IMG/VR virus record: IMGVR_UViG_3300027985_000978
Location: 1-64,000 of that record
From: a virus
Strand: one strand, 5' to 3'
Length of the DNA stretch: 64,000 bases
Shown here piece by piece: positions 13,162 through 18,531 of this stretch. How positions within the stretch are numbered: the stretch's first letter is position 1; the number at the start of each line of letters is the position of its first letter. A program made the translations under genes and the position numbers. The notes under the pieces are model-generated. The model had not been told where the DNA came from, did no database searches, and worked only from the letters and a program-made list of their open reading frames with translations.

Positions 13162-13332
13162 ATGGACGACTCACAAGCCATTAGCATGAATGCAATCCGT
13201 CAAATCACCACCTTTGACCAGCTGAAAGCCTTTGAAAAACGGGTTTATCAGATGGATATCAACTGGACTTTGCGCGACAAACTGATCCGCCAAGCCACAC
13301 AAAACTTTGCTGAAGCCAGCCCCCTGATTTAA
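13162..13332 (+). CDS. Small hypothetical protein, 56 aa
   Basis: Too short for many gene callers but well supported: it starts at ATG 13162 after the rightward promoter and operator and ends at TAA 13330-13332, directly before a terminator. The product (starts MDDSQAISMN) is helical and soluble. Its leader shares the 14-mer CACATCAAGAAGCG (13140-13153) with the leader of the gene at 25883. The position opposite the regulator gene is typical of Cro- or Cox-like proteins, but there is no clear DNA-binding motif. Confidence 0.6.
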   Translation: MDDSQAISMNAIRQITTFDQLKAFEKRVYQMDINWTLRDKLIRQATQNFAEASPLI

Positions 13333-13344
13333 TTGCTAATCAAG

Positions 13345-13364
13345 CCGCCCACGGGCGGTTTTTT
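13345..13364 (+). terminator. Rho-independent terminator
   Basis: CCGCC - CACG - GGCGG followed by six T residues, right after the 56-aa gene. Confidence 0.8.
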
Positions 13365-13398
13365 AATTGGCGATACCACCAGCGATAGGATTACGAAA

Positions 13399-14214
13399 AT
13401 GAACAAACAAGACCACATCAATAGCGCATTAGAAACTCTGAATACTCACGTTTTCACCAAGCTGGTTAGTAACCAAGATATCGTTGCATGGCGTTGCAAG
13501 CGCCCTAACTCAAGCTGTTATGCGTTCGATATTCTGATCACCCACTACGGGATCTCAGTTGTCGGGGATATTGATAATTTAACGTTTCGTGTCGGTTCGT
13601 CTTACGGTATGGAATTCTTGGCAGGGCGTGACGTTGAATACTATATCCACTCAAAATTAGACCACCACTGTAAAGAGCGGGATCTGAATCATGATCGCGT
13701 TCGTGAGTTCTGCTTGATGCACTGGCTTGAACCAATCCGAGAAGCAATCGTTGACAACTTGGACTATGAACAACAAGAAGCATTCAAAGAAGCGCTGAAG
13801 AAATACGGCTTTAAAGATGAATCTGATTTCATGTGGCTGGATGACGAAAACCAGATCCGCAACCTTTCCTCACTCGATCTGTTAATCGGTATCGCATCCT
13901 GCATCTCTAATGACTTTGACGAACTGGCGGCGGAAATCGAAGACGAAGAAACAGGACATACGCCGATCAATCTGGCAGACCTGATCGCCGCGCTACGCAA
14001 TATTAGCGACTCAAGCACTGAAGAAGAATTTTGCCATTACCTAGCGGATAGCGACACACCAGAAGGGTATATGGAATTGTCAGATTGGACGTTCACCAAG
14101 CCTTCAGAATTTTTAATCAGCCGCCTGTACTTGGTGAATCAGGCTGCTCAGAAAATCATGAAACAAATCAAAGACGCCGAAGAACAGGCGCACAAAGAAG
14201 GAATCCACGCATGA
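13399..14214 (+). CDS. Hypothetical acidic protein, 271 aa
   Basis: ATG at 13399 begins MNKQDHINSALETL; the frame is open upstream but that stretch overlaps the terminator. The protein is acidic, mixed alpha/beta, with several Asp/Glu clusters (for example EIEDEETGHTP). No catalytic motif was found. It is translationally coupled by ATGA to the DUF551-like gene after it. A Chi octamer lies at 13376, between the terminator and this gene. Function unknown. Confidence 0.65.
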   Translation: MNKQDHINSALETLNTHVFTKLVSNQDIVAWRCKRPNSSCYAFDILITHYGISVVGDIDNLTFRVGSSYGMEFLAGRDVEYYIHSKLDHHCKERDLNHDRVREFCLMHWLEPIREAIVDNLDYEQQEAFKEALKKYGFKDESDFMWLDDENQIRNLSSLDLLIGIASCISNDFDELAAEIEDEETGHTPINLADLIAALRNISDSSTEEEFCHYLADSDTPEGYMELSDWTFTKPSEFLISRLYLVNQAAQKIMKQIKDAEEQAHKEGIHA

Positions 14215-14456
14215 AAAACCTACCACCTAAAGCAGATAGCCACCATTGGCTTGATGCCGCCGCAAAACCATCAGTAGTCGTTCTAGCTAAGTTTCAGGCA
14301 TTTAGTAACCTTGTGTTATGTCGGTATTATTATGCTTTGAAAGAATGGCATATTGACGGTTTTCACGGTTCATCACCGGAGCCGGTTGAATGGTGGCTAT
14401 TGCCGGAGACGGGAACCGGAACACGGGTTAATGCTCCCGCTGAACAATCAGCCTGA
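14211..14456 (+). CDS. DUF551-like small protein, 81 aa
   Basis: Start ATG overlaps the preceding stop (ATGA). The central Trp-containing segment and the end PEPVEWWLLPE match the DUF551 pattern (a final V-x-x-W-x-x-L-P) found in many enterobacterial phages and of unknown function. Compact, no membrane segment. Confidence 0.65.
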   Translation: MKNLPPKADSHHWLDAAAKPSVVVLAKFQAFSNLVLCRYYYALKEWHIDGFHGSSPEPVEWWLLPETGTGTRVNAPAEQSA

Positions 14457-14637: not shown

Positions 14638-14664
14638 AAAAAGGCTGCACAGTGGCAGCCTTCA
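14638..14664 (-). terminator. Strong terminator on the minus strand
   Basis: On the minus strand AAGGCTGC - CACTGT - GCAGCCTT is followed by TTTTCTTG. No minus-strand gene lies between it and 15800, so it ends either read-through from the protease gene or a small RNA antisense to the rep leader. Confidence 0.75.
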
Positions 14665-14673
14665 TGAAGAATT

Positions 14674-14702
14674 CAAGCCGTTGATTAGGAATCAAGGGCT
14701 TG
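14674..14702. promoter_or_regulatory. TGATTAGGA operator-like element, copy e (extended palindrome)
   Basis: CAAGCCGTTGATT - AGG - AATCAAGGGCTTG: 13-base arms with one mismatch around the central AGG. This is the most symmetric copy and shows that the element can act as a dimer-binding operator. Confidence 0.65.
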
Positions 14703-14763
14703 ATCACTCCAACGCAGATCGGTTAGAGTGAGCGGGTGATCAGGTTCCCATACCCGATCACCC
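14702..14763. promoter_or_regulatory. GATC cluster with 8-bp inverted repeat
   Basis: GATC at 14702, 14717, 14738 and 14756. GGGTGATC (14734-14741) mirrors GATCACCC (14756-14763). About one GATC per 256 bases is expected, so four in 58 bases is a cluster. It resembles Dam-sensitive origin or pac sequences of P1 in kind, not in exact sequence. Confidence 0.55.
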
Positions 14764-14954
14764 AAAAAACGGCCTGAATCGTCTAGACAACGAATTCCGG
14801 CTCATGAATTGATGAACTGAAGTCAACCCATGCACACATACAGAATAGGTGAGGCTGTATGCGGGATACTCTATGTATCTTGTTAATGAGTTTAACACAC
14901 CCGATCTGTAGCTCAAGTGTTCATGTGGTGATTTCACTATTTTTAGGTGAAATT

Positions 14955-15752
14955 ATGAGCAACACAACCAAAGTAAACCACAGTCACAAGATCGTTCTGC
15001 AAGCCCAATCATTTTCTTTCTGTAAAGCTGGACAGGTTTTACTCGCAATCGCTTATCACGCCAAGAAACCAGAAAAATCAGGTGAAGGCTGGCGCTGCTT
15101 TCCAAGTCGTCAAAAAATCGCTGAATTAACAGGCATGGTTGAACGTACCGTGTTTACTCAAACTGAACGCCTGATCAAGGCTGGTTTAATCAAAATTATT
15201 AAAAATGGAAAGAAAGGGATAGCGAACGTTTACGAGTTAAATCTTGATTTACTCTTTAATCCAACTGCTCATGTATTCTTCACTCTGACCAACAAAGAAG
15301 AAACTAGCGAATCACAAGCCATTGTAAGGATGTCTAAAGAACGCTCTGAGAACGGTCTGAAGAAACACCTTGCAAAGATAGGTATCATTAAAAACAACCA
15401 AAAAACTTATCCACAACCTACGCAAAATCCGATCCAACCAAAAACCGGATATACAGGCACAACCAGTGATCAAAACGATCCGAGTAACAGTACAAGACTT
15501 AAAGATCTTAAAGAGAACAACGCGCAAGGCGCGACCCCTTCCCCTTTTATGAATTTTTCAAAACGAGCCATTGAGATGATCGCTGAATCAATCAAGTGCC
15601 AGTTAAGCAAGGCAAACGACACAATCAACCGCCTATCAACCGGTTCTGGCACTGAAAGCGAACTAACCCAAGCGTTTAATGACCTAAATCGTATCAATGC
15701 AGACATTGAACGCTATACGCCAGTAGCGCAGCACTACGGGATAGCGATATAG
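14955..15752 (+). CDS. Replication initiator-like protein with winged helix
   Basis: 265 residues from ATG 14955, with AGGTGA just upstream; the longer frame from 14859 lacks a ribosome site. Residues about 10-100 form a helix-turn-helix/winged helix of the HTH_36 type used by plasmid and phage initiators (CFPSRQKIAELTGMVERTVF, then LIKAGLIKIIKNGKKG). Residues 140-185 are a Gln/Pro/Thr/Asn linker whose DNA holds a perfect DnaA box and short repeats, so the origin may lie inside the gene as in lambda O and P1 repL. The C-terminal 80 residues are helical. It is not obviously a RepL-family sequence, so equivalence to P1 RepL is by position and role only. Confidence 0.7.
   Translation: MSNTTKVNHSHKIVLQAQSFSFCKAGQVLLAIAYHAKKPEKSGEGWRCFPSRQKIAELTGMVERTVFTQTERLIKAGLIKIIKNGKKGIANVYELNLDLLFNPTAHVFFTLTNKEETSESQAIVRMSKERSENGLKKHLAKIGIIKNNQKTYPQPTQNPIQPKTGYTGTTSDQNDPSNSTRLKDLKENNAQGATPSPFMNFSKRAIEMIAESIKCQLSKANDTINRLSTGSGTESELTQAFNDLNRINADIERYTPVAQHYGIAI
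15395..15446. other. Candidate replication origin: DnaA box and short direct repeats inside rep
   Basis: TTATCCACA at 15407-15415 is a perfect DnaA box. It is flanked by CAACCAAAAA at 15395 and again at 15435 (period 40). The region encodes a low-complexity linker, so the DNA sequence is free to serve as an origin. Confidence 0.55.
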
Positions 15753-15799: not shown

Positions 15800-16792
15800 T
15801 TACTGGTAGCCTTTAAACTTCTTGCCGAAGATAACTGCACCAGCTGGCACTTTGTCGGTAGTCACTGGTGAAACGCTGGTGACGCGATTAGCTTTACCAA
15901 GCGGCAAAGTGTCTAACTGAATTCCGGACACGGACTCTAAGAACTGGCGGAAAATCAGCGCGTCTTCTGGTGTTTTCATTGCAGCCATAGCACGGCGCTG
16001 TTCATCTGAGAGCATGACCGGAAACTGATCGAGAGATTCAAGGATCAGGGTTTCCCGTTGTTTCTCGCGCTGGTTGAGTTCTGTTTGTGCAGCGTCCAGA
16101 TCGCGCTTTAACTGTGCTGATGCTTGTTTACCTTCAAGTAACATGCCGTTAAGCATGAATACATCGAATTCAGCATTACGCGCCGCTTCAGCTGCAAGAG
16201 ATACGCGATTCCATGAATCAAGGAACATACGATCAGCCTGAATGCCGCGCTGTTGCAGATTGTGAATGATCAGATCGTCAACGGTTGAAACCCCAACTGA
16301 TTCAAACATGGATTGCTGGCGATCATTGGGGATAAAGTTTGGCTGATTCACATAATCGAAACCGAAGAACTGGCGCGGATAGTCTGCACCGTTGCTGGTT
16401 GCACCGGTACAGGCCCATGACCAGCCACCCGCCTGAGATTCAAGCATGGACTGAACAATCAGGCCGCTGGTTGTGTCCATCACTTCCTGAGTATGCGCAA
16501 TGTTGCCTGAATCGTCAGCTTCGATAGACACGGTGAAGTTTGCCGGTACGTTCTGGATAGCAACGGCTTTACCTTCAATCATGACAACTTCAAATTCTGA
16601 AGGTTTCATTTTGTTGGTAGCCTGCCGGACACCATGACCAAAGTAGCCGTACAGTTCGCCCAGCTTTAACCCTTCTTGCGTCTGTGCGGATTCGAGCATG
16701 GCTTTAACCGCGTGCAACACATAACGGCGGCCATTGCCACCAGCACGGCCTTCTTTGTAGATATTAAATTCATCATTAACGCGAATAGGCAT
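15800..16792 (-). CDS. pro: Prohead (head maturation) protease
   Basis: 330 residues, immediately downstream of the portal gene with a 2-base gap. The N-terminal 170 residues contain the beta-rich protease-like part with the conserved-looking GELYGYFGHGVR, GNIAHTQEVMDTTSG and GGWSWACTG segments; S and H residues here could form the catalytic site. A coiled coil (about 220-265) follows and may act as a scaffold. Position next to the portal and opposite darB matches P1 pro-prt. I infer cleavage of capsid and internal head proteins during maturation. Confidence 0.7.
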   Translation of the reverse strand: MPIRVNDEFNIYKEGRAGGNGRRYVLHAVKAMLESAQTQEGLKLGELYGYFGHGVRQATNKMKPSEFEVVMIEGKAVAIQNVPANFTVSIEADDSGNIAHTQEVMDTTSGLIVQSMLESQAGGWSWACTGATSNGADYPRQFFGFDYVNQPNFIPNDRQQSMFESVGVSTVDDLIIHNLQQRGIQADRMFLDSWNRVSLAAEAARNAEFDVFMLNGMLLEGKQASAQLKRDLDAAQTELNQREKQRETLILESLDQFPVMLSDEQRRAMAAMKTPEDALIFRQFLESVSGIQLDTLPLGKANRVTSVSPVTTDKVPAGAVIFGKKFKGYQ

Positions 16793-16794
16793 AA

Positions 16795-18471
16795 TTATTT
16801 TTCTCCGAGTAAATTGATAATTTGGGAGTGAATGAGGTCTTGTAAATAACCATCAAAGCCTTCAGATCCGCCGTGATAACCTACGGACTCCATGAACCCT
16901 TCCCCGCCTGCATTTTTTGCTGCGCTGGCAAGGTCTTTGATGATTTGGTCTGTTTTGTCTTGATCGATGCGGATAATGTCTGTCAGAACTAAACGCTTGA
17001 ATGATTCAGAACCGGCTAATCTGCCGTTTTCGATAGTGTCTAACAGGGTAGCCAAAGCAGTGGCGTAAGCCGTTCTGACTTCGGTTGCATCTGCCTGTTC
17101 CTGCTCAATGGCGGTATTCAGAGAATGGAAACGAATATCAATCGGGCGTGCTGTACCGGCTGGAAAGACTTTGCCGTACTTATAGGCCATATGAATATCA
17201 ATCAGACGATTGACCGCGTTCACAACGCCCACACGTAACCAGTTCGCCCGAATTGTGGCTTGAATGGATGTTCTGAAGAAGCCCCCATCTCCGAGTCCAC
17301 CACTCATAAGATCACCCCATCCGAGCATGGACACGTCGATCCCAAGTCCCGCACTCATGCGTTTGAGGTGAAACATGATATCTTCAATGTGCTGGATATC
17401 TGGCGACACGGTTTGTGTGTCGATGCTAACGCCACCTTTTGAGCCGGAAAGGTTCGGGATAATGCTGTTCCAGACCGAAGGAATAAGCCCTTTCTGACGC
17501 CCCTTGCGGTATGCCGCTTCTAAGTCTTTGCGTAGCTGTGTACCAACCATATTCAGATAGGACGCTGCACGGGCCGGATCTAAATTGTCCATGCCAAGGG
17601 CAATAAACCGGTCAATACGAGAGGCGTTATAGCGTGAGCCCTTCAGACTTCTGATCGCGTCGGACAGGTCACACCATGCCGGATATGCAAACTCAAGAAA
17701 TGATGTGCCGTAGTCTTGCGTTTCGATAGGCACGCGACGGTGCAGATCGTCATATAACGAATACTGTTTACCCGTCTGGTTGAATGGCTCTTTAAAGATA
17801 TTTGGTTGCCAGTACGGAACACGCAACGCCACCAGTTGCCACGGCTCAACTAATCGAACTTCCCCGCCGTTCACCTGTTCTTTCAGGTATTCAGACGTAT
17901 AGCCAGCACACTGACCGCCGCGCACGTACTCGCGTATATGCTGGGCCATCGTGTAATAGCTGGATTCGATATCGAACACGCCGCGCTTATTGTCTGCATA
18001 GGGCCGGATATAGTGCGTCCCAAAGGCAGCCATGATCTTACACCATGACGGTAAACCCTGATTTAACAGCACGCCCAGCTCTGCCTGAAGGCTGGCCGCC
18101 AGCTCTTTGAATTCTGGTGTCTTGCTGGTGATTTCAAGAATATTTCCGGTCTGACTATCAACACTTAGCGCGTGTGATATGTGCATGTCCAGTGCGCCGG
18201 ACAGAACCGGATCACAGACCATATCCTGAATAAGCCCGTACTTAGCAAAACGATCATCCGGCATCTTTTTATCTGCCATCCAATCCATTGTACCGGTTGC
18301 GCTGGTGGCGCTGTTACCGCTCGGATCAGTTGGCGTGTTATTTAGGCCATACATGACATTTGTACCGCCAGCCAGTAGCGGCAATGACGGATCGTCTACA
18401 TCGGCGGGGTTATACCCGCTAAAGGCTTGCTGAAATAAACTAACAAGCCCCTTTTTTGGTTTGTCTGCCAT
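16795..18471 (-). CDS. prt: Portal protein
   Basis: 558 residues from the ATG at 18471 (MADKPKKGLV), with GTGGGGG directly upstream; the frame is open to 18501 but the later ATG has the ribosome site. Length and features fit a phage portal: N-terminal flexible part, a KMPDDRFAKYGLIQDMVCDP segment, a central conserved region with SRIDRFIALGMDNL and a long C-terminal helix region. It is transcribed towards the protease gene and divergently from darB, across a 130-base gap containing an operator-like element and a Chi site. The dodecameric portal is the channel for packaging and ejecting DNA. Confidence 0.75.
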   Translation of the reverse strand: MADKPKKGLVSLFQQAFSGYNPADVDDPSLPLLAGGTNVMYGLNNTPTDPSGNSATSATGTMDWMADKKMPDDRFAKYGLIQDMVCDPVLSGALDMHISHALSVDSQTGNILEITSKTPEFKELAASLQAELGVLLNQGLPSWCKIMAAFGTHYIRPYADNKRGVFDIESSYYTMAQHIREYVRGGQCAGYTSEYLKEQVNGGEVRLVEPWQLVALRVPYWQPNIFKEPFNQTGKQYSLYDDLHRRVPIETQDYGTSFLEFAYPAWCDLSDAIRSLKGSRYNASRIDRFIALGMDNLDPARAASYLNMVGTQLRKDLEAAYRKGRQKGLIPSVWNSIIPNLSGSKGGVSIDTQTVSPDIQHIEDIMFHLKRMSAGLGIDVSMLGWGDLMSGGLGDGGFFRTSIQATIRANWLRVGVVNAVNRLIDIHMAYKYGKVFPAGTARPIDIRFHSLNTAIEQEQADATEVRTAYATALATLLDTIENGRLAGSESFKRLVLTDIIRIDQDKTDQIIKDLASAAKNAGGEGFMESVGYHGGSEGFDGYLQDLIHSQIINLLGEK

Positions 18472-18531
18472 CAATCCCCCACGGGTTGAGGCTAGGTGCA
18501 ATCGGGCGAATTGCTAAGGACGGGAGCCGAC

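What the first reader, a model, noticed from the sequence alone, without database searches (positions are those of the whole stretch)
15395..15480. Probable replication origin inside the initiator gene
Seen: perfect DnaA box TTATCCACA at 15407 within DNA that encodes a low-complexity Gln/Pro/Thr/Asn linker, with CAACCAAAAA repeated 40 bases apart. Known: lambda ori is inside O and P1 oriL is inside repL. Inference: origin nested between DNA-binding and partner-binding domains.
Basis: partly seen in the sequence, partly recalled or inferred. Interest (0 to 1): 0.6.

Follow-up and report, generated by a model that had tools for sequence, protein, structure and literature searches.

The report
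P1-type lytic origin inside initiator gene
A phage related to P1 probably starts copying its DNA from a spot inside the gene for its own replication starter protein, as P1 does; this is a new, distant example of a known arrangement, and comparing relatives suggests where that protein binds.

Summary
In detail: a perfect DnaA box (15407-15415, +) lies in DNA that encodes a disordered Gln/Pro/Thr/Asn linker. The gene, 14955-15752, encodes a winged-helix protein of the lambda-O/RepL type. The window is 64 kb of an 81.7 kb P1-like phage of the Aeromonas group. The gene sits beside the head-processing and portal genes, where several P1-like phage-plasmids carry repL, the lytic initiator; P1 oriL lies inside repL.

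The DnaA box alone is weak evidence. Close relatives lack it, and in P1 such boxes can be mutated without effect. Three supports are better. (1) Perfect boxes occur at nearly the same place in P1, Pantoea and this gene, in three different reading frames. (2) Eight divergent repL linkers carry two iterons, CCCCnTGnTCAAAATGANC, 23-25 bp apart, conserved beyond what the protein requires, just before the A/T-rich tract that P1 needs. The best match to this iteron in the whole record is at 15462-15483. (3) An A/T-rich tract with GATC follows, at 15478-15520.

Verdict: probably an oriL-type origin, about 15374-15520; a new, divergent member of a known kind. The iteron pair is a testable bonus. Nothing here shows replication directly.

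The parts
14955..15752 (+). Gene for the probable lytic replication initiator (265 aa, RepL/lambda-O-like, N-terminal winged helix, linker, C-terminal helical part)
   Evidence: HTH_36 31 bits, above the curated cut-off; PHROG 'replication initiation O-like' E 1.7e-9; profile match to the RepL family, probability 90%, E 1.6e-6 over 71 columns; position next to head-processing and portal genes as for repL in P1-like phage-plasmids
15081..15191 (+). Segment encoding the HTH_36 match (residues 43-79), predicted DNA-binding part
15378..15542 (+). Segment encoding the unstructured linker (residues 142-196) that holds the candidate origin
   Evidence: low-confidence AlphaFold model, pLDDT below 50 here; low-complexity composition
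15374..15416 (+). A/T-rich tract running into the DnaA box, comparable to P1 AT1 plus DnaA box
   Evidence: duplex-stability profile: second least stable 43-mer of the gene, -1.156 kcal/mol per step
15407..15415 (+). Perfect DnaA box TTATCCACA
   Evidence: similar position (gene nt 453) to that in P1 repL (442) and Pantoea agglomerans repL (476), each in a different reading frame
15395..15404 (+).
   Evidence: not conserved, probably incidental
15435..15444 (+).
   Evidence: not conserved, probably incidental
15462..15483 (+). Iteron-like site ACCAGTGATCAAAACGATCCGA (consensus CCCCnTGnTCAAAATGANC)
   Evidence: best match in the whole 81.7 kb record, both strands, to a matrix built from 16 sites in 8 other repL genes
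15431..15507 (+). Four GATC sites (15431, 15468, 15477, 15504)
   Evidence: densest 100 bp of the gene, synonymous-shuffle P 0.012
15478..15520 (+). A/T-rich tract with palindrome CTTAAAGATCTTAAAG (15498-15513), candidate unwinding element comparable to P1 AT2
   Evidence: least stable 43-mer downstream of the iteron-like site, -1.200 kcal/mol per step, 98.5th percentile of the record; palindrome
15561..15734 (+). Segment encoding the C-terminal helical hairpin (residues 203-260)
   Evidence: the only long part of the model with pLDDT of about 66-82
14640..14954 (.). Noncoding leader with a minus-strand terminator (14663-14640) and a minus-strand promoter-like pair, possible antisense RNA over the initiator's leader
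   Evidence: same layout in relatives
15800..18501 (-). Head-processing gene (15800-16792) and portal gene (16795-18501): the context that identifies the slot
   Evidence: phrog_1801 and phrog_1497; portal 69-70% identical to Aeromonas phage-plasmids

Best explanation
The gene encodes the phage's lytic replication initiator, a divergent relative of P1 RepL of the wider lambda-O type. Its origin lies inside its own coding sequence, in the DNA that encodes the flexible linker, about 15374-15520. Proposed mechanism: the winged-helix domain binds the iteron-like site at 15462-15483; the neighbouring A/T-rich tract at 15478-15520, with GATC at its core, melts; host replication proteins are loaded there, perhaps with help from DnaA at 15407. 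Shown here: the anatomy, the gene's slot and family, and the shared layout with P1 repL. Inferred: binding, melting, loading, and replication itself.
For: Protein family: HTH_36; PHROG O-like, which P1 RepL also matches; profile-profile match of its winged helix to ten RepL-type proteins, probability 90%, E 1.6e-6. Slot: next to head-processing and portal genes, as for genes annotated as lytic replication protein/RepL in P1-like phage-plasmids of Shigella and E. coli and for their homologs in Pantoea, Salmonella and Enterobacter. Precedent: P1 oriL is inside repL; synonymous changes in the A/T-rich AT2 tract strongly reduce cis activity (PMC9948254). Layout: P1 has A/T tract, DnaA box (gene nt 442), two iterons (451-496), AT2 (about 497-539); this gene has A/T tract (420-462), DnaA box (453), iteron-like site (508-529), A/T tract (524-566). 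Iterons: eight repL genes carry a pair 23-25 bp apart, found by leave-one-out matrices, synonymous-shuffle P 0.026 or less in each and 0.007 or less in seven. A matrix that never saw this gene puts its best match in the whole record inside this linker: rank 1-2 of 163,316 positions with the full-length matrix. DnaA boxes in three genes in three reading frames.
Against: Only one good iteron-like site here, not a pair. The site 48 bp upstream scores badly (-7 bits), and the pair test gives only P 0.057. Much of the match is already dictated by the peptide SDQNDP (single-site shuffle P 0.3), and shorter matrices rank it 2nd to 34th in the record. The protein does not match the P1 RepL family itself (phrog_2418) or P1 RepL by BLASTP; the link is through profiles, the O-like families and gene order. 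The nearest relatives have neither the box nor the iteron in their genes. The linker's A/T-richness is partly due to its amino acids (shuffle P 0.25). GC skew of the record shows no turn at this place; it falls steadily, apart from a plateau where genes switch strand. The noncoding leader upstream is also A/T-rich and GATC-rich, so it is a rival site.
Confidence: 0.7

Rival explanations
1. The protein is the initiator, but its origin is the noncoding leader upstream (about 14640-14950), not the linker.
For: The leader has four GATC sites in 55 bp (14702-14756), inverted repeats and one of the least stable tracts of the record next to it (14568). In the relatives AS3 and pASP-135 the leader is 79% identical over 319 bp although the encoded proteins are barely related, and it holds the densest GATC cluster in both stretches.
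Against: The conserved leader has a minus-strand promoter-like pair and terminator, which fits an antisense RNA or regulatory leader at least as well. In P1 the element needed in cis is inside repL (PMC9948254). The iteron match, DnaA box and A/T tract in P1 order are in the linker.
Confidence: 0.15
2. The gene is a winged-helix initiator or regulator, but the DnaA box, repeats and A/T-richness in its linker are chance products of a low-complexity, Lys/Asn/Gln-rich peptide; the origin lies elsewhere in the record.
For: Each single feature is weak by synonymous shuffling: DnaA box expectation 0.097, A/T minimum P 0.25, single iteron P 0.3. Near relatives lack the box.
Against: The features coincide in the P1 order, the iteron matrix picks this linker out of 81.7 kb, and the slot is that of repL.
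Confidence: 0.12
3. The gene is the plasmid-maintenance replicon, having replaced the RepB cassette of the relatives.
For: Relatives carry a Rep_3 RepB gene between a small conserved ORF and this gene; here that place holds two unrelated ORFs (13402-14214, 14217-14456) and no Rep_3 gene is found in the record. A ParM-type partition gene is present.
Against: Relatives carry both RepB and this gene, so it is an addition to the plasmid replicon rather than its substitute. The record is linear and probably incomplete, so a plasmid replicon may be missing.
Confidence: 0.1

Closest known systems
Phage P1 lytic replicon (repL with internal oriL)
   Same: Winged-helix initiator gene whose linker DNA holds an A/T tract, a perfect DnaA box at nearly the same gene position, an iteron-like site and a second A/T tract with GATC, in the same order
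   Different: Protein too divergent for BLASTP and not in phrog_2418; no kilA directly upstream; only one clear iteron here against two in P1; gene lies beside the portal genes (as in D6-like relatives) rather than in the ant-kilA operon
repL-type genes of D6-like and other P1-like phage-plasmids (E. coli, Shigella, Salmonella Newport, Pantoea, Enterobacter kobei, Serratia, Xenorhabdus)
   Same: Gene order with head-processing protein (and portal where the stretch shown includes it); winged helix, A/T-rich linker, most with paired iterons
   Different: Sequence identity very low; opposite orientation relative to the portal genes in the Aeromonas group
Phage lambda O gene and ori
   Same: Origin nested in the linker of a winged-helix initiator; PHROG 'O-like' match
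   Different: No array of four iterons and no adjacent helicase-loader (P-like) gene found
Aeromonas phage-plasmids pASP-135, AS3 plasmid, YURI17 plasmid
   Same: Same slot and wider synteny; portal about 70% identical in the two complete ones; winged-helix gene beside it
   Different: They also carry a Rep_3 RepB cassette, absent from this record; their linkers lack the DnaA box and the P1-type iteron

Membership tests
P1 RepL/oriL lytic replicon | Protein matches the RepL family (phrog_2418) or P1 RepL directly | tested here: not met
   No phrog_2418 match at E 0.001; BLASTP against P1 RepL meaningless
P1 RepL/oriL lytic replicon | Winged-helix domain related to that of RepL at profile level | tested here: met
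   hhalign probability 90%, E 1.6e-6 over 71 columns; both match PHROG O-like families
P1 RepL/oriL lytic replicon | Genomic slot of repL in P1-like phage-plasmids (beside head-processing and portal genes in the D6-like branch) | tested here: met
   window 15800-18501 compared
P1 RepL/oriL lytic replicon | A/T-rich tract in the linker, the cis-essential element in P1 | tested here: inconclusive
   Tracts at 15374-15416 and 15478-15520, but not beyond what the peptide predicts (P 0.25)
P1 RepL/oriL lytic replicon | Paired iterons CCCCnTGnTCAAAATGANC 23-25 bp apart (defined in this work) | tested here: inconclusive
   One site, the best in the record; pair test P 0.057
P1 RepL/oriL lytic replicon | Replication initiates in the gene when the protein is made | not testable with these tools
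   needs a plasmid amplification assay
Lambda O/ori | O-like initiator domain | tested here: met
   phrog_391, 678, 1032
Lambda O/ori | Array of four near-identical iterons in the linker | tested here: not met
   The repeat finder shows no such array
Lambda O/ori | Adjacent helicase-loader gene (P-like) | tested here: not met
   Downstream neighbour is the head-processing gene on the other strand; upstream neighbours have no family match
Rep_3/RepB iteron plasmid replicon | Rep_3 initiator domain (PF01051) | tested here: not met
   No match in the 81.7 kb record; present in relatives

The most novel reading that the evidence does not exclude
The paired sites CCCCnTGnTCAAAATGANC, 23-25 bp apart, just before the A/T-rich tract are the binding sites of RepL-type initiators. 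They define oriL across the P1-like phage-plasmids, and this phage carries a decayed or drifted version of them (one good site) next to its own unwinding tract.
Probability: 0.5. Interest if true: 0.6.

Novelty: new member of a known kind. Interest (0 to 1): 0.45.

Why it matters
[quoted passage not shown] Comparing eight divergent repL genes gives a concrete candidate: two iterons just upstream of the essential A/T tract, conserved at the DNA level. It also suggests that nesting the origin in the initiator's linker persists across P1-like phages whose initiators have diverged almost beyond recognition, including this Aeromonas-group phage.

Tried and rejected
Direct homologs of the protein: none in phage records or in IMG/VR and GTDB genome contigs by peptide patterns; one plasmid hit, pASP-135 at 28%. 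So relatives were found through the portal gene.

GATC clusters as an origin mark: only suggestive. Linker clusters reach P about 0.01 in this gene and pASP-135 and are not significant in the others.

DnaA box as a conserved mark of the group: rejected, present in 3 of 15 genes.

Synonymous-site conservation of the linker between AS3 and L026: 2/38 against 23/145, P 0.11, not significant.

GC skew: no origin signal.

Rfam on the leader: nothing above gathering score.

A 24-bp iteron array in this gene: CAAAA occurs in 24-bp phase at gene nt 445, 469 and 517, but matrix scores of the extra sites are negative.

Rep_3 search in the record: none.

The structure model was too poor for a fold search (mean pLDDT 47).

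Literature on oriL iterons: none found in the papers held; the 1989 P1 papers and the 2004 genome paper were not read.

Full report
What the window is. The window is bases 1-64000 of an 81,679-base virus record classed as linear. It encodes a P1-like phage of the Aeromonas group: portal protein 69-70% identical to those of Aeromonas plasmids pASP-135 and AS3 and about 38% to P1, a DarB-like methylase-helicase of 2237 aa, a terminase pair and a ParM-type partition gene.

The observation. TTATCCACA at 15407-15415 (+) and CAACCAAAAA at 15395 and 15435 are as described. The DNA encodes a Gln/Pro/Thr/Asn-rich linker that the structure model leaves disordered; the model is poor overall, and only the C-terminal helical hairpin is reasonably confident. 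The box on its own is not beyond chance: 18 near-matches against 14 expected in the window, and two more perfect copies in the record.

What the gene is. The 265-aa protein has an HTH_36 winged helix and matches the PHROG families for lambda-O-like replication initiation. P1 RepL matches the same O-like families but has no BLASTP similarity to this protein. A profile of ten RepL-type proteins matches the profile of this protein and its homolog L025 over the winged helix with 90% probability, E 1.6e-6. The slot is decisive in my view. In P1-like phage-plasmids of Shigella, E. coli, Pantoea, Salmonella and Enterobacter, the gene next to the head-processing protein is the RepL-type gene, annotated as such in Shigella and E. 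coli, and here the gene lies next to the same pair (15800-18501). The Aeromonas relatives have a winged-helix gene in the same slot too. One of these, in AS3 (L013:21820-22455, -), has no matching annotation in its record.

Where P1 starts. A 2023 study found that synonymous changes in an A/T-rich 43-bp tract inside repL (AT2) cut cis amplification by about 7- to 11-fold, that mutating the two DnaA boxes does not matter significantly in its reporter assay, and that it is unknown whether RepL binds AT2 or the C/G-rich DNA before it (PMC9948254).

Comparison of linkers. I collected 15 repL-slot genes. (a) The least stable 43-mer of the gene lies in the linker for P1 (nt 497-539, which I take to be AT2), Vibrio, both Pantoea, Salmonella, Serratia, L003 and pASP-135. 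In AS3 and L026 it also lies just after the winged helix, at gene nt 372, although the script's fixed boundaries labelled it 'other'. In this gene the linker tracts rank second and fourth. (b) A perfect DnaA box on the + strand lies in the linker of P1 (nt 442), Pantoea agglomerans (476) and this gene (453), in three different reading frames; 0.24 such boxes are expected over the set by synonymous shuffling. The different frames mean a shared peptide does not explain it, though the test is post hoc and 12 genes lack it. (c) Eight genes share two copies of CCCCnTGnTCAAAATGANC, 23-25 bp apart, immediately before the A/T tract. With matrices that leave the tested gene out, the pair is found in every case, with synonymous-shuffle P between below 0.0004 and 0.026. 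Two of the 16 copies are read in another frame, so the motif is not simply a conserved peptide. The matrix built from those eight genes, applied to this record, has its best match at 15462-15483, inside this linker and on the same strand: rank 1 or 2 of 163,316 positions with the full-length matrix. Shorter versions rank it lower, and its margin over the next hit is small. The same matrix does not pick out the linkers of the other Aeromonas-group genes.

Mechanism. The most likely reading is a P1-type lytic replicon: the protein binds its own gene at the iteron-like site, the A/T tract at 15478-15520 opens, and host replication proteins load. DnaA may help but is probably dispensable, by analogy with P1. 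Binding, melting and loading are inferred. I give 0.7 that the origin is in the linker.

Rivals. The leader upstream is GATC-rich and strikingly conserved among relatives: AS3 and pASP-135 are 79% identical over 319 bp although the encoded proteins hardly resemble each other. It carries a terminator on the strand opposite to the gene in the relatives examined (in L026 and L003 read by eye) and a promoter-like pair of hexamers on that strand in the same place; this pair passes the consensus scan only in YURI17, while in the others I read it by eye from the sequences. That fits an antisense RNA over the initiator's leader, but an origin there is not excluded. Relatives also carry a Rep_3 RepB cassette between a small ORF (here 13163-13333) and the leader. 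In this record two unrelated ORFs stand there, and no Rep_3 gene is found. Because the contig is probably incomplete, I do not conclude that the plasmid replicon is lost.

Novelty. Nesting an origin in the linker of a winged-helix initiator is known from lambda and P1. This is a divergent new member. The paired iterons across P1-like repL genes are, as far as the held literature shows, not described, and they answer to a direct test. Older P1 papers that might mention them could not be read.

Noticed in passing
window 14640-14950; L013:22468-22786 (-); L001:11640-11970; L007:9525-9815: Noncoding leader before the initiator gene: conserved opposite-strand terminator and promoter-like hexamers (TTGAGC, 16-17 nt, TAAACT/TATAAT), GATC-rich hairpins; 79% identity between AS3 and pASP-135 although the genes they precede barely match. 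Candidate antisense RNA; no Rfam match.
   Followed up: partly
window 13163-14456: The Rep_3 RepB cassette that relatives carry here is replaced by two unrelated ORFs, one with homologs in Pseudomonas phages; no Rep_3 gene in the record.
   Followed up: partly
record position 79391-79700 (beyond the window; L012 about 16392-16701): Densest GATC cluster of the record (11 in 300 bp) inside a terminase (PacA-like) gene; resembles the Dam-site-rich pac site of P1.
   Followed up: partly
L011, L029, L031, L032, L034, L035, L036, L038 repL-type genes: Paired 23-25 bp iterons CCCCnTGnTCAAAATGANC before the A/T tract in eight divergent repL-type genes.
   Followed up: yes
L013:21820-22455 (-): RepL-slot gene of the A. 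salmonicida AS3 plasmid is not annotated; a short hypothetical ORF on the other strand is annotated instead.
   Followed up: no
L023 (PBAS01000007.1, 79 kb): A P1-like portal gene lies in a contig assigned to a Phycisphaeraceae metagenome bin; probably a mis-binned phage-plasmid.
   Followed up: no
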